DNA of 64,000 bases. Origin: Paraburkholderia sp. ZP32-5. GTDB lineage: Bacteria > Pseudomonadota > Gammaproteobacteria > Burkholderiales > Burkholderiaceae. The stretch covers positions 1,674,001-1,738,000 of the forward strand of contig NZ_JAJEJP010000001.1 of assembly GCF_021390495.1 (NCBI RefSeq). The letters are read 5' to 3'. Position 1 is the stretch's first letter, and the number at the start of each line of letters is the position of its first letter. The position numbers and the translations under genes were made by a program. Under the pieces are notes generated by a model, which saw nothing but the letters and a program-made list of their open reading frames with translations, ran no database searches and was not told where the DNA came from. Of the stretch, positions 38,713 through 62,206 are shown piece by piece.

Positions 38713-38730
38713 ATACGACCTTGGTCCAAT
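38713..38730 (-). promoter_or_regulatory. Palindromic box 1 (ppk2 side)
   Basis: ATACGACCTTGGTCCAAT, a full match to ATNNGACCWWRGTCNNAT with both outer AT pairs. It lies about 135 bp upstream of ppk2. Confidence 0.7.
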
Positions 38731-38784
38731 ATCGTCGCGGCCTCCCATAGCCCCGTGCTTACCCATACGCTGGCGGCATCCGCT

Positions 38785-38802
38785 GTAAGACCAAGGTCCG
38801 AT
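38785..38802 (+). promoter_or_regulatory. Palindromic box 2 (SYLF lipoprotein side)
   Basis: GTAAGACCAAGGTCCGAT; the core and right outer AT are intact and the left outer AT is lost. It lies 72 bp from box 1 and about 190 bp before the SYLF gene. A weak -10 (CATCAT, 38824) is centred 33 bp downstream. Confidence 0.65.
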
Positions 38803-38993
38803 GGCCGAGATGGCTCACCGTGACATCATGTAACCGGAAACTTTGCAGTCGGTACCCGCGCGTGAGGCGTGCAAACAGGCACGCAACCGAGCACGCAACG
38901 GCGCCGGCGTTCCGAGGTGCGGCGAGCGTTTTGCGGTGTGCGGCCGGAGACTGGCACTGGCGAGTCGCGTGATAACCAGAACGGAGGTCGATT

Positions 38994-39581
38994 GTGAAAA
39001 GAAGGAACTTTGTTCAAACGCTCGCATTGTCGACCATTGCCGCGAGTCTCGCGTTGGCGGGCTGCACGACGACTTCGGGAAGCGGCGACAGCCCGGCGAC
39101 CGACGCATCGAAGCGGCAGGAAATCGACGCCGCCGTGGATGGCGCACTGTCGAAACTGTTCGGCACGGTGCAGGGTTCGAAAGAACTCGTGGCGAAGGCT
39201 CAAGGCGTGCTGGTCTTCCCGTCGGTCAAGAAAGCCGCGTTCATCGTCGGTGCCGAATATGGTGAAGGTGCGTTGCGTATCAATGGCAAGACGGCCGGTT
39301 ATTACAGTACCGCCGCCGCGTCGTTCGGGCTTCAGGCGGGCGCCCAGTCGACCGCCATCATCTTCCTGTTCATGACGCAGGATGCGCTGCAGAAATTCCA
39401 GAGTTCGGCGGGCTGGTCGGTGGGTGGCGATGCCGCCGTTTCGATCGCGAAAGTCGGCGCCAATGGCGCAATCGATACGACCACCGCGACCTCGCAGGTC
39501 GTCGCGCTCGTGATGACCAATGCCGGGTTGATGGCGGACCTGTCACTCGCGGGCACGAAGGTGACGAGGCTTAATCTGTAG
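38994..39581 (+). CDS. SYLF-domain lipoprotein (BPSL1445 type)
   Basis: A 195-aa lipoprotein with signal MKRRNFVQTLALSTIAASLALAGC and lipidated Cys24. A short Ser/Gly/Asp linker is followed by the SYLF/Ysc84-type domain from about residue 45: VDGALSKLFGTVQGSKELVAKAQGVLVFP, AGYYSTAAASFGLQAGAQS and FMTQDALQKFQSSAGWSVGGDA. SYLF domains bind membranes in other systems; the bacterial role is unclear. The GTG start at 38994 is set by GGAGG six bases upstream. It diverges from ppk2, and two regulatory boxes lie between them. Confidence 0.88.
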   Translation: MKRRNFVQTLALSTIAASLALAGCTTTSGSGDSPATDASKRQEIDAAVDGALSKLFGTVQGSKELVAKAQGVLVFPSVKKAAFIVGAEYGEGALRINGKTAGYYSTAAASFGLQAGAQSTAIIFLFMTQDALQKFQSSAGWSVGGDAAVSIAKVGANGAIDTTTATSQVVALVMTNAGLMADLSLAGTKVTRLNL

Positions 39582-40561
39582 CGCGTGGCGGGTTTGCGCG
39601 TTGCTCGTCGATTCGCTTCGATTTGCTTTGCTTTGCTTCGCAATACGAGGACAACGGATCCGGAGAGCACACACTCATCCGTATCTGTTCACCAGCGCCG
39701 CATCGTCGCGCCTGTCAGCGTGCAGAGCGCGATGGCGGCCGCATTGTTTGGACGTCGATACGTTCGACATCGATACCGCGCCGCGTGCGGATCAGCTTGC
39801 TGATTCGCATCGCGCGTTGCGTGGCGCTATCGTTCGGCATCGCTCGACGTCTTTCACGCGCTGCGGCGCGCCTTCTGTGTTCTCCCTGCAACGTTTCCAC
39901 GCGGTCTCGCGACAGGCCGCCTGTTCGTGTTTGTTGCACACGACGCAAACCGTGCTGCGTCACGCCGGCAATCAACCGTTCAACTCAACATCCATTGCTT
40001 GATGTACGGCGCTGTTCGAGACCGTTTACGCCAATTAGCCAGCGATGAGTCGTCAACGTATTGCGGGAAAGTGCTGTCATATATTAATGCCCGGTGAATT
40101 AACGCCGCGGCATGCGATTAATTCCTGATTGGCCAGGGCGAAAATTGTATTTATTTTCAACCCGACTGATCAAGATCACGAAATGACAAAAAATTGATAG
40201 AGGAGGAAGCCGTAATCGCTTCGTCTGGTACATGACATTCGCGCAATTTTCCGGCACGATGCACGTATCTCACGACGGCCGGCAGCGGCCCGAGCGGATA
40301 ATTAAATGGATAGAAAAATGGAATGGGGTACGCAATGTCGTTAATTAGCTGATGCTGGCGGAAAAAGCATAATATTTCTTGCTTGAATGCGCGTGATTTC
40401 CGGCAGAAAATACACACACTACCGGTAATAGATTCTTCAGTCGCCTATACTGATCGTCAGCACGGCATCACGAAGGTTCGTGATGCTCAGTACGGGGTTC
40501 CATCCTGCAGATAAAGACGTCGCGGTTGTACAAATCCGTTGGTACCGACACGGAGATACCG
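39582..40561. other. 980-bp region without a recognised gene, right part AT-rich
   Basis: The first 400 bp have several overlapping open frames with no ribosome sites or family similarity. From about 40060 the composition turns AT-rich. A possible 38-codon ORF starts at the ATG near 40232, but AGGAGG lies too far upstream to serve it. The FNR-like box at 40166 is in this part. Promoters for the histidine kinase gene are expected here. Confidence 0.5.
40166..40179. promoter_or_regulatory. FNR/Anr-like box candidate
   Basis: CTGATCAAGATCAC differs from TTGAT-N4-ATCAA only at the outermost base of each half. It sits in the AT-rich gap about 380 bp before the histidine kinase gene. Crp-type binding is another possibility. 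Confidence 0.3.
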
Positions 40562-42016
40562 ATGATCAATCTGATCGTGCACGGCAGGCATCTGGCAATC
40601 GCAGCAGTGGGCATATTAACGGCGTTGTATGCGCATCAACGCCAATTCAGGGATTTTCCCCCGGCAACGGCGAGTTCTCGCGCTCGCCATTCACCGCTTT
40701 ACGAACCCAGTCTTTCCAGTCTGTTGCCTTCCGGGCATTTTCCGTCCTCATTCCCTTGCGATGACGCTGGCATGTCGAGCAGGCAGACAACCGCTATCGG
40801 CGAGCTGACCGTTGCACGGCCCGCATGGCGCCGTTATGCCGCCGCATGCGCGTCGTGGCTGCGCATCGGGCGCGAGCGCAACGCGCGCCGGATGCTCGAT
40901 GTCAGGACGCCCCTGCGTGAGACGCTGGAAATGCTGCCGGTGCCGATCGTCACCGCCGACCACCGGAATCAGATCGTCTTCGCGAACACCCGCGCGGCGA
41001 AACTGTTCGGCTATACGAGCGAAGAACTGATTGGGGCTTCGACCGGCGTGCTGTTTCCGATTCACGACGAGAGCGCCGGCGGCGCGGCTGGCGACGAGCG
41101 CGGCGCGGCGCGGCAAATCACCAGCGACGGCAGCGCGCAGATTCTGATCGCAAGGCGCCGCGACGGCGTCAGCTTTCCCGCCGAGGCCGAAACCACGCAA
41201 TGCCGCGTATTCAATCAGTTGCTTCGGATCACTGCGATTTCCGATTGCAGCACCTCGCCGGAACTGGATCGCAACCCGAGGGATCTCGTGCATCTGGCGC
41301 GCGCGTCGTCGCTGGGCGAACTCGCCGGGTCGCTCGCGCACGAATTGAAGCAGCCGCTCACCGCGATTCTGTTCAACGCGCAGGCAGCGAAGAAATTCAT
41401 CGACTCGGACAGGGCTAACACGGTGGAGCTTCGTGAAGCGCTCGAAGATATCGTCACCGACAATTGCCGCGCGAACGACGTGCTGCAGAAGATCCGCGCG
41501 CTGGTCCGCAAGGGTGATATGGAGTTGCAACTGCTCGACCTCGGCGGCGTCGTGCGCGATATCGCACTGCTCGTGCATAGCGACGCGTTGACGCGCGGCG
41601 TGCGCACGAACTTCGATATCGCCGAGAACCTCGCGCTGGTGTGCGGCGACAAGGTGCAACTGCAGCAGGTGATCCTCAACCTGCTGCTGAACGCGTTCGA
41701 CGCGGTGAAGGATTGCGATCCGGCCGAGCGCGTCGTCGAAACGATCGTGCGCGAGGGACCGGAAGGCAATGTGCGCATTACGGTGAAAGACCGGGGGCAG
41801 GGCCTGACCGTCGACAATATGGAGAAGATTTTCCGGCCGTTCTTCACCACCAAGCCGCAGGGGCTTGGGCTCGGGCTATCGATCAGCCGCACGATCGTCA
41901 CCGCGCACCAGGGGCGCCTGTGGGCGGAAAACAACGCCGGCAGCGGCGCGTCGTTTCACGTCACGCTGCCGAGAGCGCATGGCATGCGCGAGAGCCCGCC
42001 GCGCCAATCGTCATGA
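40562..42016 (+). CDS. PAS-domain sensor histidine kinase (FixL-like)
   Basis: A 484-aa sensor kinase. An N-terminal region of about 110 residues has no clear domain; one weakly hydrophobic stretch (LIVHGRHLAIAAVGILTALYA) is near the start. A PAS domain covers about 118-225 (MLPVPIVTADHRNQIVFANTRAAKLFGYTSEELIG, ARRRDGVSFPAEAE). The dimerisation domain has His260 in SLAHELKQPLTA. The ATPase has N box LNLLLNAFDAV, ITVKDRGQGL and GLGLGLSISRTIV. The PAS resembles FixL, but I find no His between the FPIHDE segment and RRRDG where FixL binds haem. GGAG precedes ATG 40562; a TTG at 40526 or ATG at 40772 are alternatives. It overlaps the response regulator gene by four bases. Confidence 0.9.
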   Translation: MINLIVHGRHLAIAAVGILTALYAHQRQFRDFPPATASSRARHSPLYEPSLSSLLPSGHFPSSFPCDDAGMSSRQTTAIGELTVARPAWRRYAAACASWLRIGRERNARRMLDVRTPLRETLEMLPVPIVTADHRNQIVFANTRAAKLFGYTSEELIGASTGVLFPIHDESAGGAAGDERGAARQITSDGSAQILIARRRDGVSFPAEAETTQCRVFNQLLRITAISDCSTSPELDRNPRDLVHLARASSLGELAGSLAHELKQPLTAILFNAQAAKKFIDSDRANTVELREALEDIVTDNCRANDVLQKIRALVRKGDMELQLLDLGGVVRDIALLVHSDALTRGVRTNFDIAENLALVCGDKVQLQQVILNLLLNAFDAVKDCDPAERVVETIVREGPEGNVRITVKDRGQGLTVDNMEKIFRPFFTTKPQGLGLGLSISRTIVTAHQGRLWAENNAGSGASFHVTLPRAHGMRESPPRQSS

Positions 42017-42639
42017 GCCAGCTCGCCACGCCCCGGGTATTCATCGTCGACGACGACGACAGCGTGCGCGGCGCGCTCGCGCGGCTGCTGCGCGCGTCGG
42101 GCTATCAGGTGGAATGCTTCGACAGTCCGCAGGCCTTTCTGGAGCGGGCCGATCTCGTGAGCCTGCCCGCCTGCCTCGTGCTCGATCTGCAGATGCCGGG
42201 CATGACCGGGCTGGAGGTACAGCGCAAGCTCGATCAACAGCTGCCGATCGTCTTTCTGACCGGCCACGGCGACATGAACTCCGGCGTCGAAGCGATGAAG
42301 GGCGGCGCGCTCGACTTTCTGCCGAAGCCGGTCTGCGAAGCCGAGCTGCTCGCCGCGGTCGAGCGTGCGCTCAAACGTGCGTGCATCGAGAGCCGGCGGC
42401 GCCACGAGCGCGCGGAGATCGAGGAGCGCATGAGCCATCTGACGCGCCGCGAGCGCGAAGTGATGGAACTGGTCGTCACCGGCCGCCTGAACAAGCAGGT
42501 CGCCAGCGATCTCGGCGCGGCCGAAAAGACCATCAAGATTCATCGCGCGCGGGTGATGGAAAAGATGAAGGCGAGATCGATCGTCGAGCTGGTCCAGCTC
42601 GTCGCGAAGGCCGGCGTCTGCCAGACCGACGAAGAATAG
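42013..42639 (+). CDS. FixJ/NarL-type response regulator with LuxR helix-turn-helix
   Basis: A 208-aa two-domain regulator. Receiver residues: acidic cluster D13-D16, phospho-acceptor D58 (LPACLVLDLQMPGMTG), T84 region and K106 (LPKP). The C-terminal LuxR-type domain spans about 140-200 (LTRREREVMELVVTGRLNKQVASDLG, TIKIHRARVMEKM). The FixJ-style linker helix joins them. The start overlaps the kinase stop (ATGA), so the pair is co-translated and cognate. FixJ-like proteins activate promoters from palindromic sites; the six GACCWWRGTC boxes in this window are the obvious candidates, by inference. Confidence 0.95.
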   Translation: MSQLATPRVFIVDDDDSVRGALARLLRASGYQVECFDSPQAFLERADLVSLPACLVLDLQMPGMTGLEVQRKLDQQLPIVFLTGHGDMNSGVEAMKGGALDFLPKPVCEAELLAAVERALKRACIESRRRHERAEIEERMSHLTRREREVMELVVTGRLNKQVASDLGAAEKTIKIHRARVMEKMKARSIVELVQLVAKAGVCQTDEE

Positions 42640-42806
42640 CTCCCCCGTGTTGCTCCGCGCCATCGGCGCCGTGCGGGCAAACCAGCGCCTGCTTATCGCG
42701 CGTGTCTCGCGCGCCTGTCTCTTGCGTGATATCCCACGCGTATGTCCGTCGATTCCGGGCGGCAGCCGGTCCGCGAAAGCATGCGATCAACGTAACGTCG
42801 ATGCAA

Positions 42807-42824
42807 GGTGGACCAAAGTCCTAT
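42807..42824 (+). promoter_or_regulatory. Palindromic box 3 (receiver gene)
   Basis: GGTGGACCAAAGTCCTAT; core with AAA in place of AAG, right AT present. It lies 79 bp before the stand-alone receiver gene. A -10-like TATTAG (42844-42849) is centred 31 bp after the box centre, which would place the box near -41. Confidence 0.65.
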
Positions 42825-42902
42825 ATCTCATTCTGGTGACAACTATTAGGCTAAAGCGTCGATGGTCTAATTGCCCGAACAATTGCGTGGTCGTGCTGTT
42901 AT

Positions 42903-43304
42903 ATGGTCAACCCCAACCAGATCGTTGCCGTCGTCGATGATGACGAGTCGGTTTGCCGGGCCATCAAGCGTTTGTTGCATTCCGAAGGAATCAGGGCGGA
43001 GACTTTTTCGAGCGGTGACGAGTTTCTGAATACGCTGGCGGCCATTCCGTCGTATCGGCCGGCGTGTGTCATCCTCGATGTGCAGATGCCCGGAATCAAC
43101 GGCCTTGAAGTCCAGCGCCAGCTCGCGAAGACGGGTGTGCCCATCATCATGATCACGGCCTATGACGATCTCGCCGTGCGTCAGGCCGCGCTCGCGGCCG
43201 GCGCGGCCGCCTATCTGCGCAAGCCGTTCAACAGCGCGATCCTGTTCAAGGCCGTCGAGATGGCAATAGACGGTTCGTCGCCCGCGCCGCCCGCCACGCC
43301 TTGA
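42903..43304 (+). CDS. Stand-alone receiver-domain protein
   Basis: A 133-aa CheY-like protein with no output domain. The acidic pocket is VDDDE, the phospho-acceptor D59 (ACVILDVQMPGINGLEVQRQL), T85 (MITAYDD) and K107 (LRKPF). Sequence is close to the FixJ receiver in the neighbouring regulator. It follows that regulator after 263 bp and has its own box upstream (42807). It may compete for phosphate with FixJ-like protein, or act as a phosphate sink or connector, as FixT-like or single-domain receivers do elsewhere. No enzymatic domain is present. Confidence 0.93.
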   Translation: MVNPNQIVAVVDDDESVCRAIKRLLHSEGIRAETFSSGDEFLNTLAAIPSYRPACVILDVQMPGINGLEVQRQLAKTGVPIIMITAYDDLAVRQAALAAGAAAYLRKPFNSAILFKAVEMAIDGSSPAPPATP

Positions 43305-43441: not shown

Positions 43442-43459
43442 ATGAGACCAAGGTCTGAT
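43442..43459 (+). promoter_or_regulatory. Palindromic box 4 (secreted-protein gene)
   Basis: ATGAGACCAAGGTCTGAT, a full match with both outer AT pairs. It lies in the 326-bp gap (43305-43630) after the receiver gene, about 172 bp before the next start. No other feature was recognised in that gap. Confidence 0.7.
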
Positions 43460-43630
43460 TGTCTCCCCCGCAGCCCGCCACCAAACTGCATTCTGTCGAT
43501 GCGTCGAATGGAAGACGGGCCGCGCCGAACTGCCGTGCGACCCGACGCACGGCGATGCGTTCGCGCGCGCCATTGATGGCGCGGCGCGCGGCCGCGTGCA
43601 CAAGCGTGCACGAACTAGCAGGAGCGCACG

Positions 43631-44023
43631 ATGAAAACAGCAACAGCCTTCTTCGCGATCTCACTCGCCGTGATTGCCTTCGATACGTCGGCGGCCGACT
43701 TCGACGGCAGCAAGCCGTTGATCTGCGCGACGATCGATGGGCACGCATGCGATCCGGGCATCACCTGCACGCGTTACTTGCCGGTCGATATGGGCGCGCC
43801 GAAATTTCTGACGCTCGACTTCGACAAGCGCGTCGTCATCGGCCCCGAGCACACGACGCCGATGACGATTCTGGACCGCAGCCCGGATCAGGTGCTGCTC
43901 GGCGGCACCGAGATGGGCTATGGATGGACTCTGGTCGTCGATACGGCGGACGGCGATATGACGCTATCGATCACGAACAGAAACGACGCGTTCGTGCTGT
44001 TCGGCAACTGCAAGGCCGCGTGA
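43631..44023 (+). CDS. Small secreted Cys-containing protein, unknown function
   Basis: A 130-aa exported protein: signal MKTATAFFAISLAVIAFDTSAA, cleaved before DFDG. The mature domain has four Cys (32, 40, 46, 127) that could make two disulfides, e.g. around LICATIDGHACDPGITC. The rest is a beta-rich, acidic sequence (LTLDFDKRVVIGPE and LVVDTADGDMTLSITN). No domain was recognised. AGGAG lies about seven bases before the ATG. It sits between the receiver gene and the efflux operon, with regulatory box 4 upstream. Confidence 0.7.
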   Translation: MKTATAFFAISLAVIAFDTSAADFDGSKPLICATIDGHACDPGITCTRYLPVDMGAPKFLTLDFDKRVVIGPEHTTPMTILDRSPDQVLLGGTEMGYGWTLVVDTADGDMTLSITNRNDAFVLFGNCKAA

Positions 44024-44039
44024 TCAGACGGAGCATGCG

Positions 44040-45362
44040 ATGAAGACCGTCCCAGTATGTTTCCCGTCGCCAGAGCCGGACGCGCGCACCGCTAGCGTCG
44101 CGTCGCGGGTGGGCCGCATGAGCAGCCTGAGCGGCCGCCAGCGCCTGCTGGTTGCCGTCGCGGCAATCGCGCTGCTCGCGTCGTGCAAGAAGGCATCGGG
44201 GCCGCCCGCGCTCGGCGCGCCGGAAGTCACGGTGATGACGGTCGTTGCTCAGGACACGCCGGTCTCACTCGAGTTCACCGCACAGACGCAAAGTTCGCGT
44301 GAGGTCGAGATTCGCGCGCGCGTGGACGGCTTTCTCGACCGGCGGTTGTACGCCGAAGGCGACAAGATAAAGGCCGGCCAGACAATGTTCCTGATGGATC
44401 CGAAGCCGTTTCAGGCCGCGCTGCAGACGGCGCGCGGCCAGCTTGCGGCGCAGGAGGCGCGGCACACGGTCGCGCAGCAGAACCTTGCGCGGGTCAAACC
44501 GCTTGCCGCGCAGCAGGCGTTGAGCCAGAAGGATCTCGACGACGCGATCGGCAACGAGAAGCAGGCCCAGGCCGCGGTGATTTCCGCGCAAGGGCAGGTG
44601 GAGACGGCGGAGCTGAACCTCGGCTACACGACGATCAAGTCGCCACTGAGCGGCGTCGCGAGCTATGCAAGACAGCAGGACGGCAGCTATCTGATCGCCA
44701 ATGCATCCGGGCTCCTGACCTATGTCTACCAGATCGACCCGATCTGGGTGAATTTCAGCATCTCCGAAAACGAAATGCTCCACTTTCAGGACGACATCAA
44801 GGCAGGCAAGCTGGTCTTCCCGCCAAACAGCGAGTTCGTCGTGGCAGTGATACTCGCCGACGGCACGGAATTTCCCCAGCACGGCACCATCAGCTTTGCG
44901 AATCCGGCGTTCAGCACCGACACGGGCACTTTCCTCGTGCGGGCCGTGCTCGCGAATCCGAAGGGCACGTTGCGCCCCGGGCAGTTCGTGCGCGCGCGCG
45001 TGTCGGGTGCCTCGAGGCCGAATGCGATCCTCGTGCCGCAACGGGCCGTGCTGCAGGGCGCGAAGAGCCACTTCGTGTGGGTCGTGGACGGTGAGTCGAA
45101 GGCGAAGCAGCGCGTGGTCGAACCCGGCGACTGGAGCGGCGACAACTGGTTCATCAACGATGGCCTGAAGGCCGGCGAGCGTATCGTGGTCGATGGCGCG
45201 ATCCGTGTGATACCCGACGTGGCGCTCAAGATCACCGGCACGATCGCCTCCACGCAGAGCGGTGGCACGCCGATCGTTGAAAAGGGCGGCGCGTCGGCGC
45301 CGCAGATTAGCGAGGGCGGCCGGGCGATGGCGCCGGCCACGGCCAGCGGCGCATCGCAGTAA
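44040..45362 (+). CDS. RND efflux periplasmic adaptor (MexA/AcrA-like)
   Basis: A 440-aa membrane-fusion protein. The lipobox is ALLASC with lipidated Cys49 after a long basic N-region; an ATG at 44118 would give a conventional signal. Barrel-sandwich halves are VEIRARVDGFLDRRLYAEGDKIKAG and LNLGYTTIKSPLSGVASYARQ. The hairpin lies between them (LAAQEARHTVAQQNLARVKPL), and beta-barrel domain DPIWVNFSISENEML follows. It ends in an Ala/Gly/Ser tail. GGAG precedes the chosen start. The pump gene begins 11 bp downstream, so the pair is co-transcribed. Confidence 0.93.
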   Translation: MKTVPVCFPSPEPDARTASVASRVGRMSSLSGRQRLLVAVAAIALLASCKKASGPPALGAPEVTVMTVVAQDTPVSLEFTAQTQSSREVEIRARVDGFLDRRLYAEGDKIKAGQTMFLMDPKPFQAALQTARGQLAAQEARHTVAQQNLARVKPLAAQQALSQKDLDDAIGNEKQAQAAVISAQGQVETAELNLGYTTIKSPLSGVASYARQQDGSYLIANASGLLTYVYQIDPIWVNFSISENEMLHFQDDIKAGKLVFPPNSEFVVAVILADGTEFPQHGTISFANPAFSTDTGTFLVRAVLANPKGTLRPGQFVRARVSGASRPNAILVPQRAVLQGAKSHFVWVVDGESKAKQRVVEPGDWSGDNWFINDGLKAGERIVVDGAIRVIPDVALKITGTIASTQSGGTPIVEKGGASAPQISEGGRAMAPATASGASQ

Positions 45363-45373
45363 GGGGCGACTCG

Positions 45374-48300: not shown

Positions 48301-48592
48301 CGTGATGACGTCGCTCGCGTTCATCCTCGGCTGCGTGCCGCTCGCCATCGCGCTGGGTGCCTCGCAGAACAGCCGCCATTCGATCGGCACAGGCGTGATC
48401 GGCGGGATGCTGGGTGCGACCGCAATCGCCGTGTTCTTCATTCCGATGTTCTACTGGGGGATCGAGTCGCTCGGCTCGCGCAAGGGTGGTGGCAAGCAAA
48501 CCCCCGCACCCGGCGGCGGAACGCCGCCGCCCGCATCCGGCGGCTCCGGCTCGCCAACCACCACGCCGTCCGCGCGGCATGAGGACGACTGA
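45374..48592 (+). CDS. RND multidrug efflux pump (AcrB/MexB, HAE1 type)
   Basis: A 1072-aa inner-membrane proton antiporter with 12 membrane helices. N-terminal MNISRFCIDRPIFASVISIV is typical. The proton relay Asp pair is in GIVVDDAIVVIENVERNM (AcrB D407/D408), and the partner Lys is in AAKNAILIFEFAVLN (AcrB K940). Two large periplasmic loops are present, including PQLPQQVQSQGVQVQKKSN and PAIPGLGTTGGTEMWIE. The C-terminal 30 residues form a Pro/Gly/Ser/Thr tail. The substrate range cannot be read off. It is joined to adaptor and outer-membrane genes. Confidence 0.96.
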   Translation: MNISRFCIDRPIFASVISIVITLGGALTMLSLPIAQYPDVTPPQITVSATYPGASADVVSNNVAAPIEQQVNGADNMIYMYSSGSSTGNYTLNAFFQIGTNPELAQVDVQNRVNLALPQLPQQVQSQGVQVQKKSNAFMMVIAIYSPDQRFDPTYIANYANVYVLDTIKRISGANQSSIFGTPDYAMRIWLKPDRMAQLAITAGDVQNAVRAQNEQFAVGTVGQSPTGNPVEQSFAVTTTGRLATPADFDNIIIRAASNGAAIVRLKDVGRAELGQKSYSNRTTYQGKPATIIAVYQQPGANALDVSKQVHQTLAELKKSFPEGLDYSIALDTTDFTRASIADVIHTFFEALVLVVIVVFVFLQSLRATIIPVLAVPVSIVGTAMGMAALGFSINMLTLFGMVLAIGIVVDDAIVVIENVERNMTVFKLSPKDAAKRAMDEVSGPVVAIVLVMCAVFVPVAFLSGITGQLYKQFAITIAISVVFSGIVALTLSPALAAILLKPTHHEKKGFFKWFDRQFERMTAGYGRAVKFIIRRYVLGIIVFGVVIALAVMMGKSIPGAFLPPEDQGYLLGAIIMPDAASLDRTADVGDKVTDYFMKQDAVSSITIVNGFSLLDSQNKNNAGTFFVGLKGFDERYKFSNIREQNARAVLIKAYETLSKIQEGIVVPVNPPAIPGLGTTGGTEMWIESHGDSSIQQLAGVVQDFMTKAKARPELTGVTTTFNASSQQLLVNVDRDQAETLGVPVEEVYSAMQTMFGSLYVSQFNKDARLWQVIVQADPRYRLTPTDLDEIYVRSRSNNMVPIKAVMTYKYVTGPDLITRFNNFPAVKITANAAPGYSSGQVIATLQELAAQMPPGYAVGWSGEAFEEIKSGSTGGLVFGFGIVMVFLILAAQYEKWSLPFGVLMAVPFALFGALFAILLRGLNNDVYFQIGLTMLVALAAKNAILIFEFAVLNREQGKSPYDAALVAAEERLRPIVMTSLAFILGCVPLAIALGASQNSRHSIGTGVIGGMLGATAIAVFFIPMFYWGIESLGSRKGGGKQTPAPGGGTPPPASGGSGSPTTTPSARHEDD

Positions 48593-48593
48593 C

Positions 48594-53745: not shown

Positions 53746-53763
53746 ATAAGACTTTGGTCCGAT
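53746..53763 (+). promoter_or_regulatory. Palindromic box 5 (DUF3141 gene)
   Basis: ATAAGACTTTGGTCCGAT, core with TTT, both outer AT pairs present. It lies in the 252-bp gap after pqiC and 116 bp before the DUF3141 start. Nothing else was recognised in the gap. Confidence 0.7.
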
Positions 53764-53878
53764 TGCGCGGATACCCGCGCGCGCGACACGATGAGCCCGA
53801 AACCGGATCGCGCGGGTCTTGCGGCGAGGTAGGCGGGCGCCCTCGCGGCATGACGCCGTTTTTTGTCAGGAGCCGCCC

Positions 53879-56266
53879 ATGGATGCGCCAACGCTGCTGT
53901 CCCGCAACCAGGACATCGCGACGAAAATCTCCCGCGTTCTGCAAAAGCGCACACAGATCGCCAATGAACATCTGAACCAGCGGATCAACACGGCGCTGGG
54001 CCGCGAGCATGCCGACGGTGCGAATTCGAACACCGCGCCGAGCGCCATCGCGGACACCGTCGCCGCGGCATTCGATCCGGTGCGCGCGTGGCAATACGCG
54101 CTGGACACCGCGCAGCGTTCAGTGCTGTTCTGGGACACGCTGTATCGACGCGGCAACGAATTCGTCGAGCGCAACATCGACGAGCCGCCGCCGGTGCTGC
54201 ATTTCGACTACGACATGGTGCTCGACGGCCGTACCTTCGAGCGGCCGGTCAACTACGCGCTGCTGCAACTGCGCCCGCTCGAAGGAGTGAGCGTCGATGT
54301 GCGCAAGCGCCCCTATCTGATCATCGATCCGCGCGCGGGCCACGGCCCCGGCATCGGCGGCTTCAAGGACGACTCGCAGGCGGGCGTCGCGCTGCGCGCC
54401 GGCTATCCGGTCTATTTCGTCGTGTTCTTTCGCAATCCCGAACCCGGTCAGACCCTGCTCGACGTTTGCGATGCCGAGCAGCGGTTCGTCAGCAAGGTGC
54501 GCGCGCTGCATCCGGATAGTCCGAAGCCGGCGCTGATCGGCAACTGCCAGGGCGGCTGGGCCGCGATGATGCTCGCGAGTTCCGATCCCGGCGAAACCGG
54601 CCCGATCGTCATCAACGGTGCGCCGATGTCGTACTGGAGCGCCGCGTGGAGCGAAGGCGAGGGCGACAACCCGATGCGCTACTCGGGCGGCATGCTCGGC
54701 GGCACGTGGCTCGCGTCGTACGCGGCCGATCTCGGCAACGGCAAGTTCGATGGCGCACACCTGGTGCAGAACTTCGAACAGCTGAACCCGGCGAACACGT
54801 GGTGGGACAAGTACTACCACCTGTTCTCGAACATCGATACCGAACCGCCGCGCTTTCTCGAATTCGAGCGCTGGTGGGGCAGCTACTACCTGATGAATCG
54901 CGACGAGATCGAATGGATCACGCGCAATCTGTTCATCGGCAACAAGCTGTGGTCGGGCGAGGTCAGCAACAGCGCGGGCGGCGGCTTCGATCTGCGCGAA
55001 ATCCGCTCGCCGATCATCCTGTTCGCGTCGATGGGCGACAACATCACGCCGCCGCAACAGGCGTTCAACTGGGTCGCCGACCTGTACGGCAGCACCGAGG
55101 AAATCAAATCGCGCGGCCAGGTGATCGTCGGCCTCATGCATCAAAACATCGGACATCTGGGCATTTTCGTGTCCGGACGGGTCGCGAAAAAGGAGCATAC
55201 GCAGATCGTTTCGGTGCTCGAGACAATCGAAACTTTTCCGCCGGGCCTGTACGGCATGACTATCAACGAGGTCACAAGCGAAGCCGGCGAAACCCGTTAC
55301 GAAGTCGAATTCAGCGAAAAGCGGCTGGAGGACATCGCCGCTCGGCTGAACCGCTTCGGACGCGTCGACGAAAAGCCGTTCGAGGCGGTCGCCGCGGTGT
55401 CCGAATTCAATCAGCGGGTCTATGAGTCGACGTTGCAACCGTTCGTGCAGGCGATGTCGAGCGAGACGAGCGCGCGCCTGCTGCGTCAGTTTCATCCGCT
55501 GCGCTGGCAGCGCTGGGCGTTTTCCGCGCTGAATCCGTGGCTCGGCTGGCTGCCGGCCGCCGCGCAGGCGGTCCGCGAGGATCGCCAACGCGTTGGCGCG
55601 GATAACCCGTGGAGCAAGCTCGAACACTCGGGTGCGGAGATGCTCAGCGCGTCGTTCGATTACTACCGCGCGATGCGCGATGCGGCGACCGAAGCGGGCT
55701 TTTTCGGCGTGTACGCGAATCTGTACTCGACGTTCGTCGGCGGCCCTGCCGTTGACGGCGCACCCACGCAGTCCGCCGCGACGGATCCCCGCCAGTCGCC
55801 GTTCGTGCGCGCGGCGCTGCAGGCCATCGATTCAGGCGGCTACACGGAAGCGCTCGCGCGCGCCGCGTTCCTGCTGTCGCGCAAGGGTGTGTCGTTGCCG
55901 CTCGCGCGGCTGGAGATGCGCAAGGAACTCGCTGAGCGGTACGCGGACTACCTGCCGGAGATCGGCACCGATCATTGGCGGCGGATTCGCGGCGAGCAGG
56001 AAATCATCGTCAGTTACGAACCGGAGCGGGCGATCGAGACACTGCCTGCGCTGCTTGCGAGCGATGAGGACCGCGCGCGCTTTCTTGAACTGCTCGACAA
56101 GCTGATGGTCGACGAGCGCGTGCTGGATTCCGCGCCCGACGATAATCAGCGCGCGGCGTTCGAGCGCATTCGCGCGGTGCTGGCGCCGCAAGTCGGCCGT
56201 GCTGCCCGCGCAGATCACGGGGTCCATAAGCGTGCCGCACGCGTGCCCGCCGACCGGCGCTCATGA
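53879..56266 (+). CDS. DUF3141 alpha/beta-hydrolase-like protein (PhaC-type cysteine box)
   Basis: A 795-aa protein. The N-terminal 95 residues are helical (LNQRINTALGREHADG). The core is an alpha/beta-hydrolase: the nucleophile box LIGNCQGGWAAMMLAS lies near residue 222, with Cys where lipases have Ser, as in polyhydroxyalkanoate synthases (G-x-C-x-G-G). Acid and His candidates are FASMGDNITPPQQ and MHQNIGHLGIF, in the order expected of a Cys-Asp-His triad. The C-terminal 300 residues are a helical region. DUF3141 proteins neighbour pta/ackA in Burkholderia and are linked to low-oxygen or storage metabolism. AGGAG precedes ATG 53879. An earlier in-frame start at 53819 is less likely. Box 5 lies upstream. 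Confidence 0.85.
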   Translation: MDAPTLLSRNQDIATKISRVLQKRTQIANEHLNQRINTALGREHADGANSNTAPSAIADTVAAAFDPVRAWQYALDTAQRSVLFWDTLYRRGNEFVERNIDEPPPVLHFDYDMVLDGRTFERPVNYALLQLRPLEGVSVDVRKRPYLIIDPRAGHGPGIGGFKDDSQAGVALRAGYPVYFVVFFRNPEPGQTLLDVCDAEQRFVSKVRALHPDSPKPALIGNCQGGWAAMMLASSDPGETGPIVINGAPMSYWSAAWSEGEGDNPMRYSGGMLGGTWLASYAADLGNGKFDGAHLVQNFEQLNPANTWWDKYYHLFSNIDTEPPRFLEFERWWGSYYLMNRDEIEWITRNLFIGNKLWSGEVSNSAGGGFDLREIRSPIILFASMGDNITPPQQAFNWVADLYGSTEEIKSRGQVIVGLMHQNIGHLGIFVSGRVAKKEHTQIVSVLETIETFPPGLYGMTINEVTSEAGETRYEVEFSEKRLEDIAARLNRFGRVDEKPFEAVAAVSEFNQRVYESTLQPFVQAMSSETSARLLRQFHPLRWQRWAFSALNPWLGWLPAAAQAVREDRQRVGADNPWSKLEHSGAEMLSASFDYYRAMRDAATEAGFFGVYANLYSTFVGGPAVDGAPTQSAATDPRQSPFVRAALQAIDSGGYTEALARAAFLLSRKGVSLPLARLEMRKELAERYADYLPEIGTDHWRRIRGEQEIIVSYEPERAIETLPALLASDEDRARFLELLDKLMVDERVLDSAPDDNQRAAFERIRAVLAPQVGRAARADHGVHKRAARVPADRRS

Positions 56267-56317
56267 GCGGCACCTGAGCGCCGCGCGCCACACCACCGAC
56301 CCACAAGGAAGAGGCTG

Positions 56318-57253
56318 ATGGAACGACATGCGAAATATCAGCGCCTGATTACCTACTGTCAAAGCTTGCCCGCGTTGCCGACCGCGGTCGCGCATCCGTG
56401 CGACCGCAGTTCGCTCGTGGGCACCGTCGAGGCCGCGCGCATGGGCCTGATCGCGCCGCTGATCGTCGGGCCGCGCGCGCGGATCGAAGCCGTTGCCGCC
56501 GAACACGCGATCGACATTGCCGGCTTGCCGCTCGTCGATGCACCGCACAGCCACGCGGCCGCGGCAACCGCGGTGCAACTGGTGCGCGAGGGCAGGGCTG
56601 AAGCGTTGATGAAAGGCAGCCTGCATACCGACGAGCTGATGGCCGAGGTGATCCGGCGCGATACCGGCTTGCGCAGCGCACGGCGTATCAGTCACTGCTT
56701 CGTGATGGACGTGCCCGAGCGCGAAGAGGCGTTGATCATCACCGACGCCGCGATCAACATCGCGCCGACGCTGGAGGAAAAGGTCGACATCCTGCAGAAC
56801 GCGATCGATCTCGGCCACGCGCTGCAGTTCGACGAGGTGCGGGTGGCGATTCTGTCCGCGACCGAATCCGTCAACCCGAAGATTCCGTCGACGGTGGAAG
56901 CGGCGGCGCTGTGCAAGATGGTCGATCGCGGACAGATCACCGGCGCGCTGGTCGACGGGCCGCTCGCGCTCGACAACGCGATCGACATGGAAGCGATGCG
57001 CATCAAGCAGATCGATTCGAAGGTCGCGGGCCGCGCGAACGTGCTGATGGTGCCCGACCTCGAAGCCGGCAATATGCTCGCCAAGAGCCTGTCCTTTCTG
57101 GCCGGCGCGGACGCGGCCGGCATCGTGCTCGGCGCGCGCGTGCCGATCATCCTGACGAGCCGCGCGGATTCGATCGTGACGCGGCTCGCGTCGTGCGCGG
57201 TCGCCGCGCTGGTGGCGAAGGCGCGGCGCGAGGGCGGCAAGGTGGTCGGGTGA
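56318..57253 (+). CDS. pta: Phosphate acetyltransferase (short Pta/PTB type)
   Basis: A 311-aa Pta/phosphotransbutyrylase-family enzyme making acetyl phosphate from acetyl-CoA. Family motifs are ALMKGSLHTDELMAEVIR, ISHCFVMDVP, VAILSATESVNPKIPSTVEA and ITGALVDGPLALDNAID, then LMVPDLEAGNMLAKSLSFL. It has only the catalytic domain, unlike the long E. coli Pta. The stop overlaps a GTG that could start ackA, and AckA is the next enzyme, so the pair converts acetyl-CoA to acetate with ATP gain. Confidence 0.95.
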   Translation: MERHAKYQRLITYCQSLPALPTAVAHPCDRSSLVGTVEAARMGLIAPLIVGPRARIEAVAAEHAIDIAGLPLVDAPHSHAAAATAVQLVREGRAEALMKGSLHTDELMAEVIRRDTGLRSARRISHCFVMDVPEREEALIITDAAINIAPTLEEKVDILQNAIDLGHALQFDEVRVAILSATESVNPKIPSTVEAAALCKMVDRGQITGALVDGPLALDNAIDMEAMRIKQIDSKVAGRANVLMVPDLEAGNMLAKSLSFLAGADAAGIVLGARVPIILTSRADSIVTRLASCAVAALVAKARREGGKVVG

Positions 57254-57270
57254 CGCTGGAGCAGACGAAA

Positions 57271-58458
57271 ATGGCCGATGTGATTCTGGTGCTGAATGCG
57301 GGTTCGTCCAGTCTGAAATTCAGCGCGTTCGACGCGCAGGCGGCACGACTGGATTTGATTTTGCGCGGCCAGATCGAAGGGATTCATACGAACCCGCGTT
57401 TCAGCGCGACGGACCGGCATGGCGATACGAAGTCGTTCGAGTGGGGCGCCGGCCACGAACTGGGCCATCTCGGCGCGATCGAGTATCTGGCGGATTTTCT
57501 GCAGGACCACGGCGGCGGGCATCGGCTGATCGCGGTTGGGCATCGTGTCGTGCATGGCGGCCAGCGGTTTTCGCGGGCGATTCGCGCGAGCGTCGAGGTG
57601 CTCCACGAACTCGAACGCCTGACGCCACTGGCGCCGCTACATCAGCCGCACAACCTGAGGCCGATCCGCATCATCGCGCAATTGCGTCCCGAGGTGGTCC
57701 AGGTCGCGTGCTTCGACACGATGTTTCATATGACCCAGACCGAAGTCGCGAAGACCTACGCATTGCCCGCGTCGATCCGCGAGCATGGCGTGCAACGCTA
57801 CGGCTTTCACGGGCTGTCGTACGAATACATCGCGAGCGTGTTGCCGCAGATCGCGCCGGCCGCGGCGGCGGGGCGCACCGTCGTCGCGCATCTCGGCAAT
57901 GGCGCGAGCCTGTGCGCGATGGTCGCCGGCAAAAGCGTCGCGAGCACGATGGGGTTCACCGCGGTCGAAGGACTGCCGATGGGCACGCGTTGCGGCAGTC
58001 TCGACCCCGGCGTGATTCTGTACCTGCTCGACGAACTGAAGATGGATTCGCGCGCGATCGCCGACGTGATCTACAAGGAGTCGGGTTTGCTGGGCCTGTC
58101 GGGCATCTCCGGCGATATGCGCGAGTTGCTCGACAGCACCGACGCGCGCGCGGCTTTCGCGATCGACGTGTACACGTACCGCATCGCGCGCGAAATCGGC
58201 AGTCTCGCGGCGGCCATGCAAGGTCTCGATGCGCTCGTGCTGACCGCCGGTATCGGCGAGCGCGCGGTGGCGATTCGCGAGCGCATCGTGCGCGACGCGG
58301 GATGGCTCGGCGCGGAACTCGACGACGCGGCCAACCGCGCCGGCGGCCCGCTGATCAGCCGGGCGTCGAGCCGGCTGCCGGTGTGGGTCATTCCAACTAA
58401 CGAGGAACTGATGATCGCGCGCCATACGAGGGAACTCGTCGGCAGCGCCGGGGGATGA
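57271..58458 (+). CDS. ackA: Acetate kinase
   Basis: A 395-aa acetate kinase. Motifs: VLNAGSSSLKFSAFD (adenosine/phosphate 1), GHRVVHGGQRF (Arg), RYGFHGLSYEYI, AHLGNGASLCAM, MGTRCGSLDPGV and the C-terminal LTAGIGERAVAIRE. GGAG lies nine bases before ATG 57271; a GTG at 57250 overlapping pta would add seven residues. It makes ATP from acetyl phosphate, useful when respiration is limited. The fabI gene follows after 139 bp. Confidence 0.95.
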   Translation: MADVILVLNAGSSSLKFSAFDAQAARLDLILRGQIEGIHTNPRFSATDRHGDTKSFEWGAGHELGHLGAIEYLADFLQDHGGGHRLIAVGHRVVHGGQRFSRAIRASVEVLHELERLTPLAPLHQPHNLRPIRIIAQLRPEVVQVACFDTMFHMTQTEVAKTYALPASIREHGVQRYGFHGLSYEYIASVLPQIAPAAAAGRTVVAHLGNGASLCAMVAGKSVASTMGFTAVEGLPMGTRCGSLDPGVILYLLDELKMDSRAIADVIYKESGLLGLSGISGDMRELLDSTDARAAFAIDVYTYRIAREIGSLAAAMQGLDALVLTAGIGERAVAIRERIVRDAGWLGAELDDAANRAGGPLISRASSRLPVWVIPTNEELMIARHTRELVGSAGG

Positions 58459-58597
58459 GGCGCGCTGGCGTGCCGTTGTGCGTTGCGAGTTGTGTTGTGC
58501 CGTGCCGTGCCGCGTATGACGGCATCACCCGCCAACACACCGCCGCACCCATGCGCGAACCGTGTTCACCACAGGTTTTCCATCGAGGAGTTTCACC

Positions 58598-59380
58598 ATG
58601 CCGATCGAGCAACCGCGTTTGATCCTGCAAGGAGCGAAGGCTCTGATCACCGGTATCGCCAACGAGAATTCGATTGCCTATGGCTGCGCGAAGGCGTTTC
58701 ATGAACTCGGCGCGCAGGTCGCGCTCACCTATGCGAACGAGAAGACGAAGCCTTACGTCGAGCCGCTCGCGCAAGCACTCGATGCGGAGATTTTCATGCC
58801 GTTCGATGTGACCGACGAACAGCAGCTCGAAGCGCTTTTCGAGCAGATCGACGCGCGCTGGGGACGTCTGGATATTCTCGTGCACGCGGTCGCCTGGGCA
58901 CCGAAAGCGGACCTGCGCGGCGAGCTGCTGCGCTCGTCGCGCGAAGGCTTTCTGAGCGCGATGGACATTTCCTGCCACTCGTTCGTGCGGATGGCGCGTC
59001 TCGCCGCGCCGCTGATGAAAGACGGCGGCACGATGCTGACGATGAGCTACTACGGCGCGAACAAGGTCGTGCCGAACTACAGCGTAATGGGCCCCGTGAA
59101 GGCCGCGCTCGAAGCCTGCGCGCGCTATCTGGCGTTCGAGCTGGGGCCGCGCGACATCCGCGTGCACGCGATTTCCCCCGGGCCGCTGAAAACCCGCGCG
59201 GCCTCCGGGCTCAGGGATTTCGACCTGCTGCTCAACGAGGCGGTGGAGCGCGCGCCGCTCGGCGAGCTGGTCGACATCATGGACGTCGGCTATACCTGCG
59301 CGTTTCTCGCGACGCCGTACGCGCGACGGGTGTCCGGGTCCACGTTGTATATCGACGGCGGTTTGAACATCGTTGCATAG
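58598..59380 (+). CDS. fabI: Enoyl-ACP reductase (FabI)
   Basis: A 260-aa NADH-dependent enoyl-ACP reductase for the last fatty-acid elongation step. The glycine-rich site is ITGIANENSIAYGCAKAF. The catalytic Tyr-x6-Lys motif is in NYSVMGPVKAALE, with the SYYGANKVVPNY segment before it. DILVHAVAWAPKADLRGEL and ISPGPLKTRAASGLRDF are also typical. GAGGAG lies seven bases before ATG 58598. Genomes of this group usually carry more than one fabI; this copy sits with the fermentation genes, so it is probably a stress-linked copy. Confidence 0.94.
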   Translation: MPIEQPRLILQGAKALITGIANENSIAYGCAKAFHELGAQVALTYANEKTKPYVEPLAQALDAEIFMPFDVTDEQQLEALFEQIDARWGRLDILVHAVAWAPKADLRGELLRSSREGFLSAMDISCHSFVRMARLAAPLMKDGGTMLTMSYYGANKVVPNYSVMGPVKAALEACARYLAFELGPRDIRVHAISPGPLKTRAASGLRDFDLLLNEAVERAPLGELVDIMDVGYTCAFLATPYARRVSGSTLYIDGGLNIVA

Positions 59381-59410
59381 GCTTGGCGTCACTCTCAGGG
59401 AGCAACCATC

Positions 59411-59668: not shown

Positions 59669-59687
59669 CGCGCGAACGGAGCGGAGC

Positions 59688-60710: not shown

Positions 60711-60823
60711 CGCGCGACGCGACGTGTGCGGTGCGTGAGAGGCGACGGGGCGTGCGCCGCCGCACCTGCCGCGCAGTGACGCAAGGGCCGCGTGACGCGC
60801 GCGGCGGCCCCGCTATTCGTGGA

Positions 60824-61423
60824 CTACTTGCTGGCTTGAGGCTCCACCGAAATCGCCACCGCTTCGGTGTAGACAACCTGCATCTGATCGCCTTTTTTGA
60901 TCCGCTTGAGCTGCTCGGGATCCTTCACGATCAGGTCGACCGAATTGCCTTGCGGGCCTTTCAGCGTGATCTCGCCAGTGTGCGGATTGACGGCGGTGAC
61001 GTTGGCGATCACCGTCACTTCGCGCGATGCGGAGCCGCCCGGTTTCGTGCCCGGCGCCGCACGCTCGACCGATTCGGTTTCGTTGGCCGTCAGCGGCGCG
61101 TTGGTTTTCTTCAGGTTGACGGTCAGTGCCTGCGAATATTCGGCCGAGACCACGTCGCCGACTCGCAACTGCCCGAAGTTGCGCGCTTCCTCGCCGACCA
61201 CGACCTGCACGACCTTGCCCTTCGGATTCTTCAGCCACACGGTGCGCGTGCTGGGCTCGATACCGACGATCGTCGACACGGTTTTGATCGTGCCCGTCAC
61301 GACGACCTTGCCGGGTTCGCTGCGAGTCGTCACTTGCGGCGTGCCATCCGGCGCGGTCTGTGCAATGCCGGTGGTCGCAAGACACACGAGCGCGGCCGCG
61401 ATGATGCGTTTGCCCTGGGTCAT
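60824..61423 (-). CDS. Exported protein, unknown function
   Basis: A 199-aa protein with signal MTQGKRIIAAALVCLATTGIA, cleaved near AQT. The mature part is beta-rich with two similar halves: GTIKTVSTIVGIEPSTRTVWL plus VGDVVSAEYSQALTV, and ANVTAVNPHTGEITL plus IKKGDQMQVVYTEAV. This suggests a duplicated OB-like or SH3-like barrel. No known family was recognised. ATG 61423 has GAGGAG seven bases upstream; a longer frame from 61525 is rejected. The Gly-zipper gene lies 69 bp upstream on the same strand. Confidence 0.7.
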   Translation of the reverse strand: MTQGKRIIAAALVCLATTGIAQTAPDGTPQVTTRSEPGKVVVTGTIKTVSTIVGIEPSTRTVWLKNPKGKVVQVVVGEEARNFGQLRVGDVVSAEYSQALTVNLKKTNAPLTANETESVERAAPGTKPGGSASREVTVIANVTAVNPHTGEITLKGPQGNSVDLIVKDPEQLKRIKKGDQMQVVYTEAVAISVEPQASK

Positions 61424-61491
61424 GTTGCTCTCCTCGAATGCATGCGCGGGCCGTTGCCGCGTGATGCGCGCATTAAAGGCGCTGCGCAGGC

Positions 61492-61965
61492 TCATCTGAT
61501 CGTATAGCCGCGTCCTTCCATGCACGCGCCGAACGCGCGATTGAAGGTGTCCATCGCGCCCTGCGTTTGTGCCTGACTCGATGCCGCGGCTGCGCGCCGA
61601 TTTTGCCGCGCGCGCGAGCCGCCGACCATCGTGCCGGTCGCCGCGCCGATCGCCGCGCCCTTGCCCGCGTCACCGGCGATCGCGCCGATGACCGCGCCGC
61701 CGGCCGCGCCGCGCGCGGCGCCCTGAACGCGTTCGCCGCCGCCCACCGCGGGCCCCGACGGTGGCGGCGGCGCGTTGGCCACCGCGGTCGGATCGATGCC
61801 GGTATTGCTCTTCGCCCACGCGTAGCACGCGCCTTCGTCCTGCTGCTGTTTCTGCGGGCTTTGTCCGCGGGCCGGGTAGGCGATCGGCCGCGATTGCGCG
61901 AGGCCGTCGAGCGACAGCGACGCCGCGAGCGCCGTGACAATGCAGTATTTCGTCAAGGTATTCAC
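61492..61965 (-). CDS. Gly-zipper (YMGG-like) exported protein
   Basis: A 157-aa protein with a signal (MNTLTKYCIVTALAASLSLDGLAQ). After a Gln/Pro-rich part comes a Gly/Ala zipper (ARGAAGGAVIGAIAG and KGAAIGAATGTMVGG) at about 83-115, as in Gly-zipper outer-membrane proteins. The C-terminus has FNRAFGACMEGRGY, a small Cys-containing tail seen in such proteins; Cys47 (EGACYAW) could pair with it. The stop lies 68 bp from the start of the downstream gene. Its role in the envelope is unknown. Confidence 0.8.
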   Translation of the reverse strand: MNTLTKYCIVTALAASLSLDGLAQSRPIAYPARGQSPQKQQQDEGACYAWAKSNTGIDPTAVANAPPPPSGPAVGGGERVQGAARGAAGGAVIGAIAGDAGKGAAIGAATGTMVGGSRARQNRRAAAASSQAQTQGAMDTFNRAFGACMEGRGYTIR

Positions 61966-62188
61966 GACAGCTCCTTATCGTGAGTCGACGCGAGTGCAGG
62001 CCGCCACTGCCTGTTTTTGTGTTCACTGCTTTCCGCTGCTTCCCGCTGCTTTCCACTGTTTCCGCGCGTAGCGGAGCGGAACTGGCAGCCGTCGTCGGCA
62101 TTCTCTACGGGCGCTACACAGCGCAAAACGGTGCGCGCCGCAATGGCAGGTTCGCGTTCATCATCGCGCTTTGCGACGCGCGCTCGCA

Positions 62189-62206
62189 ATCGGACCAAGG
62201 TCGTAT
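62189..62206 (+). promoter_or_regulatory. Palindromic box 6 (DUF3300 gene)
   Basis: ATCGGACCAAGGTCGTAT, a full match with both outer AT pairs. It lies in the 368-bp divergent gap (61966-62333), about 128 bp before the DUF3300 gene. TTCAAT (62229), a -10-like element, is centred 34 bp downstream. No other feature was recognised in the gap. Confidence 0.7.

What the first reader, a model, noticed from the sequence alone, without database searches (positions are those of the whole stretch)
38713..62206. Six copies of an 18-bp palindrome define a candidate regulon
ATNNGACCWWRGTCNNAT occurs at 38713, 38785, 42807, 43442, 53746 and 62189. The 10-bp core GACCWWRGTC is kept in all six. The right outer AT is present in all six and the left one in four. 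All six lie between genes, and each is upstream of a gene: ppk2, SYLF lipoprotein, stand-alone receiver, secreted 130-aa protein, DUF3141-pta-ackA, DUF3300. Boxes 1 and 2 lie in one divergent gap, one for each direction. A LuxR-type FixJ-like regulator is encoded in the middle (42013). Inference: this regulator binds the palindrome and controls a polyphosphate, fermentation and envelope regulon. I noticed no copy inside genes, but this was by eye only.
Basis: partly seen in the sequence, partly recalled or inferred. Interest (0 to 1): 0.88.

Follow-up and report, generated by a model that had tools for sequence, protein, structure and literature searches.

The report
Operator and regulon of FixJ-like regulator
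Six copies of an 18-base mirror-image DNA word in this bacterium look like landing sites for a nearby two-component regulator, and the same regulator-and-site pair recurs in distant bacteria; the parts are of a familiar kind, but I found no description of this particular gene circuit.

Summary
GACCWWRGTC occurs at exactly the six stated places in the window (0.33 expected), all between genes, with the outer AT pattern as described. The 10-bp core alone means little: 59 places genome-wide, no enrichment. The AT-flanked 18-bp form is the signal: 8 places against 0 for the reversed control.

The regulator link is well supported. In 144 genomes of the genus, 86 of 89 with this FixJ-like subfamily have at least two boxes, against 1 of 55 without it. 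Some regulators from distant phyla carry the box beside their own gene. In all 11 own-genome boxes kept as real, a -10-like hexamer starts 21-23 nt past the box; in other genomes the peak is sharply at 22. The box thus sits at about -52 to -35, in place of a -35 element, as expected of a class II activator.

Targets are mostly envelope and transport genes, plus ppk2, DUF3141-pta-ackA and a stand-alone receiver. A low-oxygen signal is not supported: the residue aligned with FixL's haem histidine is glycine. This is a new member of the known NarL/FixJ kind. Binding and transcription are untested.

The parts
38713..38730 (-). box A, for ppk2; -10-like TACCTT at 38690-38685 (offset 22)
   Evidence: found by a narrow pattern in 16 of the 20 near Paraburkholderia loci L059-L078
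38785..38802 (+). box B, for the SYLF lipoprotein gene; -10-like CATCAT at 38824-38829 (offset 21)
   Evidence: 14 of 20 loci
42807..42824 (+). box C, for the stand-alone receiver gene; -10-like TAGGCT at 42847-42852 (offset 22)
   Evidence: 15 of 20 loci
43442..43459 (+). box D, for the 130-aa secreted protein and probably the efflux operon; -10-like CAAACT at 43482-43487 (offset 22)
   Evidence: 18 of 20 loci
53746..53763 (+). box E, for DUF3141-pta-ackA(-fabI); weak -10-like CACGAT at 53787-53792 (offset 23, score 1.5)
62189..62206 (.). box F, facing DUF3300 (TTCAAT at 62229-62234) and the divergent glycine-zipper gene (GATGAT at 62165-62160)
40526..42016 (+). PAS-HisKA-HATPase sensor kinase (true start uncertain)
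   Evidence: Pfam
42013..42639 (+). FixJ-like response regulator (receiver + LuxR-type HTH), proposed binder of the boxes
   Evidence: Pfam; best solved-structure match 1yio 3.7e-52; co-occurrence
42903..43304 (+). stand-alone receiver with acidic pocket, phospho-Asp, Thr and Lys all present; proposed feedback component
   Evidence: Pfam; residues read from the sequence
37763..38668 (-). ppk2, polyphosphate kinase 2
   Evidence: Pfam PF03976
38994..39581 (+). SYLF-domain lipoprotein (BPSL1445 family)
   Evidence: Pfam; NCBIfam NF049970 297.5 bits over cut-off 200
43631..44023 (+). 130-aa secreted protein (secretion by inspection), no Pfam family
44040..50111 (+). RND efflux system: membrane-fusion protein 44040-45362, AcrB-type pump 45374-48592, outer-membrane factor 48633-50111 (start uncertain)
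   Evidence: Pfam
53819..59380 (+). DUF3141 (53819-56266), phosphate acetyltransferase (56318-57253), acetate kinase (57283-58458), FabI (58562-59380); starts uncertain
61492..61965 (-). glycine-zipper protein, divergent from DUF3300
   Evidence: Pfam
62334..63833 (+). DUF3300 protein
   Evidence: Pfam

Best explanation
The palindrome (about AT-nn-GACC-WW-GGTC-nn-AT; idealised from relatives as TATTGGACCAAGGTCCAATA) is the operator of the FixJ-like response regulator at 42013-42639. The sensor kinase encoded just upstream phosphorylates the regulator (inferred). The regulator dimer then binds the box, which lies at about -52 to -35 (centre near -43) in place of a -35 element, and recruits sigma-70 RNA polymerase to a -10 hexamer starting about 22 nt beyond the box: class II activation. 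Shown here: the sites, their spacing, their conservation and their tie to the regulator. Inferred: phosphorylation, binding and activation. Regulated genes are mainly envelope, transport and efflux genes plus ppk2, DUF3141-pta-ackA and a stand-alone receiver, which may drain phosphate from the kinase as feedback (inferred). The signal is unknown.
For: Six sites, 0.33 expected. Flanked box 8 against 0 control in the own genome, and 542 against 6 in 144 genus genomes (summed). Co-occurrence: at least two boxes in 86 of 89 genomes with the regulator subfamily (best E under 1e-55, a cut chosen after seeing the list) and in 1 of 55 without, Fisher 1e-34 (related genomes, so nominal). In 300 genomes of the order the three best regulator matches outside the genus (56, 53, 51% identity) each have a box on the same contig, 55 bp to 18 kb away; one of them reads kinase-regulator-box-receiver-box. 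A box follows the regulator gene in two Verrucomicrobia records, a Zixibacteria, a deltaproteobacterial and a gammaproteobacterial record. Of 60 more distant loci (L079-L138), 37 have Lys and 19 Glu at the position of StyR Lys175 (4 others dropped): a box scoring at least 12 of 14 is somewhere in 33 of 37 Lys loci and 0 of 19 Glu loci; among records not titled as Betaproteobacteria, 7 of 13 Lys loci have it within 500 bp after the regulator gene and 0 of 14 Glu loci. Geometry: offset peak reached by 0 of 2000 shuffles over 12 own-genome box-promoter pairs; in 99 gene-facing directions from 71 of the 76 boxes fetched from 15 other genomes, 56% have a -10-like hexamer (score 2 or more) at offset exactly 22 against 1-13% at other offsets from 15 to 30; 22-23 also in L079, L084, L095, L103, L106, L111 and, weakly, L117.
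Against: No binding, expression or start-site data. 3 of 89 genomes with the subfamily have fewer than two boxes and 10 of 55 without it have one or two. In the order, 15 of the 20 boxed genomes have a single box and no regulator match above 51% identity, so single boxes also occur without it; G158, with the next-best regulator (49%), has none. 29 of 76 boxes in relatives fall inside a called gene; I think this is over-extended starts of a crude gene caller, but did not check each. 44% of the 99 gene-facing directions have no -10-like hexamer of score 2 at offset 22 (some face the wrong way). The L113 box has its better -10 on the side away from SYLF. The Lys/Glu split was found after the fact, and the near-gene test alone is modest (p 0.007). 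A kinase and receiver travel with the regulator, so linkage alone cannot exclude an unlinked binder.
Confidence: 0.85

Rival explanations
1. The regulator binds the box but represses: covering -52 to -35 it would block polymerase.
For: The box covers the usual -35 place, which also suits a repressor.
Against: The -35 place is taken by the operator itself, so polymerase would need help; spacing to the -10 peaks sharply at 22 and recurs across phyla, which a repressor does not need; CrbR, a LuxR-type regulator whose motif lies at -52 to -36 of the acs promoter, is an activator (PMC5715377, passages).
Confidence: 0.1
2. Another DNA-binding protein, for example a paralogous FixJ-like regulator, is the real binder and the neighbouring system is only linked.
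For: Own genome has further relatives at 41-47% identity; some genus genomes carry several matches below 1e-55; 10 of 55 genomes without the subfamily still have a box.
Against: The best own paralogue (47%) has Glu at the StyR Lys175 position (TVEAHR), and genomes whose best match is of about that strength nearly lack boxes (1 of 55 with two). The regulator is the DNA-binding protein of the module seen in each distant locus looked at.
Confidence: 0.08
3. The palindromes are chance, or a repeated element without regulatory role.
For: The bare core is not enriched genome-wide and is often in coding DNA; one core variant seems to lie in a repeated element.
Against: Flank, -10 spacing, orthologous conservation and co-occurrence; no Rfam family at gathering threshold in the window.
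Confidence: 0.02

Closest known systems
StyR/TodT/TmoT (styrene and toluene response regulators)
   Same: Closest solved structure (1yio, 3.7e-52; that 1yio is StyR is recalled and fits the residue numbering in PMC5874301); same receiver + LuxR-type HTH; palindromic operator whose inner half-site ACC(W) is shared with the StyR box as I recall it.
   Different: Published consensus ATAAACN4GTTTAT (PMC5874301, passages) against AT-nn-GACC-WW-GGTC-nn-AT; of StyR's three putative DNA-contact residues Lys175, Val176, His179 only Lys is identical here (Lys, Ile, Ala); no aromatic catabolic genes among the 11 boxed loci of the own genome.
CrbS/CrbR ACTU motif (acetate utilisation, Pseudomonas)
   Same: LuxR-type activator; GACYWWRGTC-like core in some listed sites; motif at -52 to -36 of the acs promoter (PMC5715377, passages).
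   Different: CrbS has an SLC5 transporter domain, here a PAS kinase; outer bases differ; its targets acs and actP are not among the boxed genes here.
FixL/FixJ oxygen system
   Same: PAS kinase plus FixJ-like regulator; FixJ is the second solved-structure match (1e-40).
   Different: NCBIfam FixJ 197 bits under the cut-off 255, FixL 209 under 850; haem histidine aligned with glycine.
Burkholderia cenocepacia low-oxygen-activated (lxa) locus
   Same: Contains a putative phosphate acetyl/butyryl transferase, as box E's operon does (PMC6127331, passages).
   Different: The oxygen regulator named there is BCAM0049, a CRP-family protein whose B. dolosa homologue FixK is under FixLJ; boxes were not looked for in that genome.

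Membership tests
NarL/FixJ-type response regulators | receiver domain plus LuxR-type (GerE) HTH | tested here: met
   Pfam PF00072 87.8 bits and PF00196 69.3 bits, over cut-offs
FixJ proper | NCBIfam equivalog NF006900 cut-off 255 bits | tested here: not met
   197 bits
FixL proper | haem-ligand histidine in the PAS domain (its place is recalled) | tested here: not met
   aligned residue is Gly; no conserved His there among 10 orthologues printed
TtrR (tetrathionate) | NF040749 cut-off 290 bits | tested here: not met
   172 bits
StyR/TodT group | Lys175, Val176, His179 and operator ATAAACN4GTTTAT | tested here: not met
   Lys, Ile, Ala at those places; different operator
CrbS/CrbR | SLC5-type transporter domain in the kinase | tested here: not met
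   only PAS, HisKA, HATPase matched
Class II activated promoters | operator centred near -42 overlapping the -35 place | tested here: met
   by sequence only, offset about 22; start sites not mapped
Class II activated promoters | activation by the bound regulator | not testable with these tools
   needs bench work
lxa regulon | presence of this box in B. cenocepacia lxa promoters | not tested
   genome not searched; 2013 paper not held

The most novel reading that the evidence does not exclude
An undescribed two-component regulon kept across several phyla with different sensor domains: kinase, FixJ-like regulator, boxed stand-alone receiver and boxed envelope genes (SYLF, sulfatase, glycine-zipper), all read through one 18-bp operator with a fixed spacing of about 22 nt to the -10. 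A single residue of the recognition helix (Lys or Glu at StyR 175) would separate box users from non-users, and the boxed receiver would be a built-in phosphate drain.
Probability: 0.5. Interest if true: 0.65.

Novelty: new member of a known kind. Interest (0 to 1): 0.52.

Why it matters
It gives an operator, promoter geometry and target list to a regulator that the databases listed name only in general terms (FixJ family, LuxR family, response regulator), and puts several genes of unknown role (DUF3141, DUF3300, SYLF lipoprotein, the 130-aa protein) into one testable regulon. The recurrence in distant phyla with different sensor domains offers a system for studying how FixJ-type regulators choose DNA and what stand-alone receivers do.

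Tried and rejected
Bare core as the signal: rejected, not enriched genome-wide. Mismatch-tolerant genome scan: its list was cut and missed known window sites, so not used. RNA element: no Rfam match. Oxygen sensing by haem: not supported. FixJ, FixL, TtrR, StyR and CrbR membership: rejected (membership test). MBL-fold gene beside L051 as target: the side facing it has no -10 at 21-23, the DUF2252 side does. Weak site inside the CsbD-like frame of L037: no -10, dropped. FNR-type operator: the same core appears in one listed FnrL site with other flanks (TTGACCAAGGTCAA, PMC4634722, one passage); the outer bases here (GACC preceded by AT-nn) differ, not tested further. Paper searches: 8 of 10 used; none showed a paper pairing this box with this regulator. 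One search listed 40 of 68 holders of the core 10-mer and I opened three (PMC5715377; PMC10475733, where it is in a primer; PMC4634722); one search was badly framed (112,142 hits) and says nothing; subscription papers and the 2013 lxa paper are not held.
Full report
Observation. The window holds exactly six GACCWWRGTC places, at the coordinates given, with 0.33 matches expected from shuffles. The sequences confirm AT on the right in 6 of 6 and on the left in 4 of 6. Gene identities were checked by Pfam and NCBIfam.

Genome context. The window is C1:1674001-1738000 of a 9.09-Mb genome in four contigs. The best named relatives of the regulator are Paraburkholderia, and two same-genus contigs have the lengths of named Paraburkholderia contigs, so the genus is taken as Paraburkholderia (inference). 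The bare core is not enriched (46 and 45 matches against 74 and 68 for the reversed pattern; 59 distinct places), and 32 of 54 distinct contexts overlap a plausible coding frame. The AT-flanked form is different: ATNNGACYWWRGTCNNAT has 8 places and its reversed control none. With at least one AT flank there are 16 distinct places. Eleven have a -10-like hexamer of score 1.5 or more 21-23 nt on: the window's six, C1:1741199, C2:239164, C2:2987658, C2:2999728 and C3:1265296. Five do not reach that: L001, L022, L041, L055 and L240 (best 1.1). The extra boxed genes are an Asp-Al_Ex/TrkA_C permease (L016), an AI-2E transporter (L034), a sulfatase (L050), DUF2252 (L051) and a BON-domain protein (L054). 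Seven of the 11 lie within 28.5 kb round the regulator.

Promoter anatomy. Orthologous promoters from the 20 near Paraburkholderia loci L059-L078, found by narrow patterns in 16 (box A), 14 (B), 15 (C) and 18 (D) of 20, show conserved blocks downstream of each box. In the own genome the best shared offset of a -10-like hexamer is 22-23 nt after the box (12 box-promoter pairs used of 14 listed, the second directions F_rev and L034_OMP left out; 0 of 2000 single-base shuffles reached it). In 99 gene-facing directions from 71 of 76 boxes in 15 other genomes, 56% score 2 or more at offset exactly 22, against 1-13% at other offsets from 15 to 30. Flank and -10 go together: taking the better of two directions and of offsets 21-23, a score of 2 or more is seen in 7 of 8 own core sites with all four flank letters, 2 of 4 with three, 2 of 9 with two and 5 of 39 with one or none. 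If the hexamer is taken as -12 to -7, the box covers about -52 to -35. The CrbR motif lies at -52 to -36 of the acs promoter (PMC5715377, passages). That LuxR-type activators often sit near -42 is recalled.

Which protein. In 144 genomes of the genus, 89 have a regulator match below E 1e-55 and 86 of these have at least two boxes; 55 have only weaker matches and 1 of these has two (tables). The exceptions are 3 subfamily genomes with fewer than two boxes (G379 with none) and 9 further non-subfamily genomes with one box. The cut of 1e-55 was set after seeing the list. In 300 genomes of the order the flanked box is rare (20 of 300): own genome 8, one same-genus genome 5, G170 2, the rest 1 each. 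The three best regulators outside the genus (G170, G100, G135) have one on the same contig; the next best (G158, 49%) has none; 15 boxed genomes have no comparably close regulator. In G170 the order is kinase, regulator, box, receiver, box, next genes (the regulator itself is placed). In distant loci the box follows the regulator gene and precedes a stand-alone receiver (L095 and L117, Verrucomicrobia; L111, Zixibacteria) or a SYLF protein (L113, deltaproteobacterium; Ysc84). In L103 (gammaproteobacterium) no gene was called after it on a short contig. In L106 (Thauera) a box precedes a sulfatase gene, and in L117 the receiver is followed by one.

Recognition helix. StyR's reported putative contact residues are Lys175, Val176 and His179 (PMC5874301, passages); here they are Lys, Ile, Ala. 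Among 60 loci L079-L138 (L059-L078, the near orthologues, were left out), 56 could be classed: 33 of 37 with Lys have a box scoring at least 12 of 14 somewhere in the locus, 0 of 19 with Glu; within 500 bp after the regulator gene the counts are 8 of 37 and 0 of 19. Random 560-bp windows of the same loci reach 12 in 2.8%; 300 permuted palindromes reached 13 near the gene in at most one locus, against five observed. Many Lys loci are related Paraburkholderia, so these are not independent; among records not titled as Betaproteobacteria the near-gene counts are 7 of 13 and 0 of 14. Six of those 13 Lys loci have no such box near the gene.

What it regulates. Boxed genes in other genomes were clustered from the 76 gene-facing directions with a -10 score of at least 1. 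They include AI-2E transporters, glycine-zipper proteins, SYLF proteins, RND efflux adaptors, outer-membrane proteins, SulP transporters, PPK2, DUF5666-like proteins, DUF3300, the 130-aa protein, DUF3141, AspT-like permeases and the stand-alone receiver, plus many single cases; names there are by likeness to annotated window genes or from memory, not from a scan of each. The common thread I see is envelope and transport. Polyphosphate and acetate genes are present but not the core. The kinase's PAS domain lacks the FixL haem histidine, and kinases of distant members carry PAS, GAF, substrate-binding or propeller sensor domains, so one shared signal such as low oxygen is unlikely.

Limits. Gene calls outside the window came from a simple frame and composition script; 29 of 76 boxes in relatives fall in called genes, which I put down to over-extended starts without checking each. 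All statistics ignore phylogeny. Nothing here measures binding, phosphorylation or transcription.

Literature. Eight searches found no paper pairing this box with this regulator (open-licence papers only, uninformative). Seven papers were seen in passages only.

Noticed in passing
own genome C1:1420193, C1:3702614, C1:3879236, C2:1123816, C2:1375273, C2:2681435, C2:2748825 (L007, L028 and others): Core variant GACCTAAGTC appears seven times; the de-duplication left only L007 and L028, so most share their near surroundings: probably a repeated element, not operators.
   Followed up: no
G306 C1:1113040 and G307 C3:33687: Perfect palindrome ATGTGACCTAGGTCACAT, identical in two genomes, matches the search pattern but may be another regulator's site.
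   Followed up: no
own genome C3:1362367-1363397 (L141, L146): A paralogous regulator match with a TGA inside lies beside a receiver match and a kinase-like frame: possibly a broken second system.
   Followed up: no
L114, about 10646: A Polyangium regulator of the Lys type has ACCCGACCTTGGTCGGGT just after its gene: same core, other flanks.
   Followed up: no
window 43631-44023: 130-aa protein with no Pfam family, boxed here and in other Paraburkholderia; a look-alike is in the Crenobacter locus L079.
   Followed up: partly
window 50108-53626: A PqiA gene and two further genes resembling pqiB and pqiC (by recall) follow the efflux operon closely and may share its transcription.
   Followed up: no
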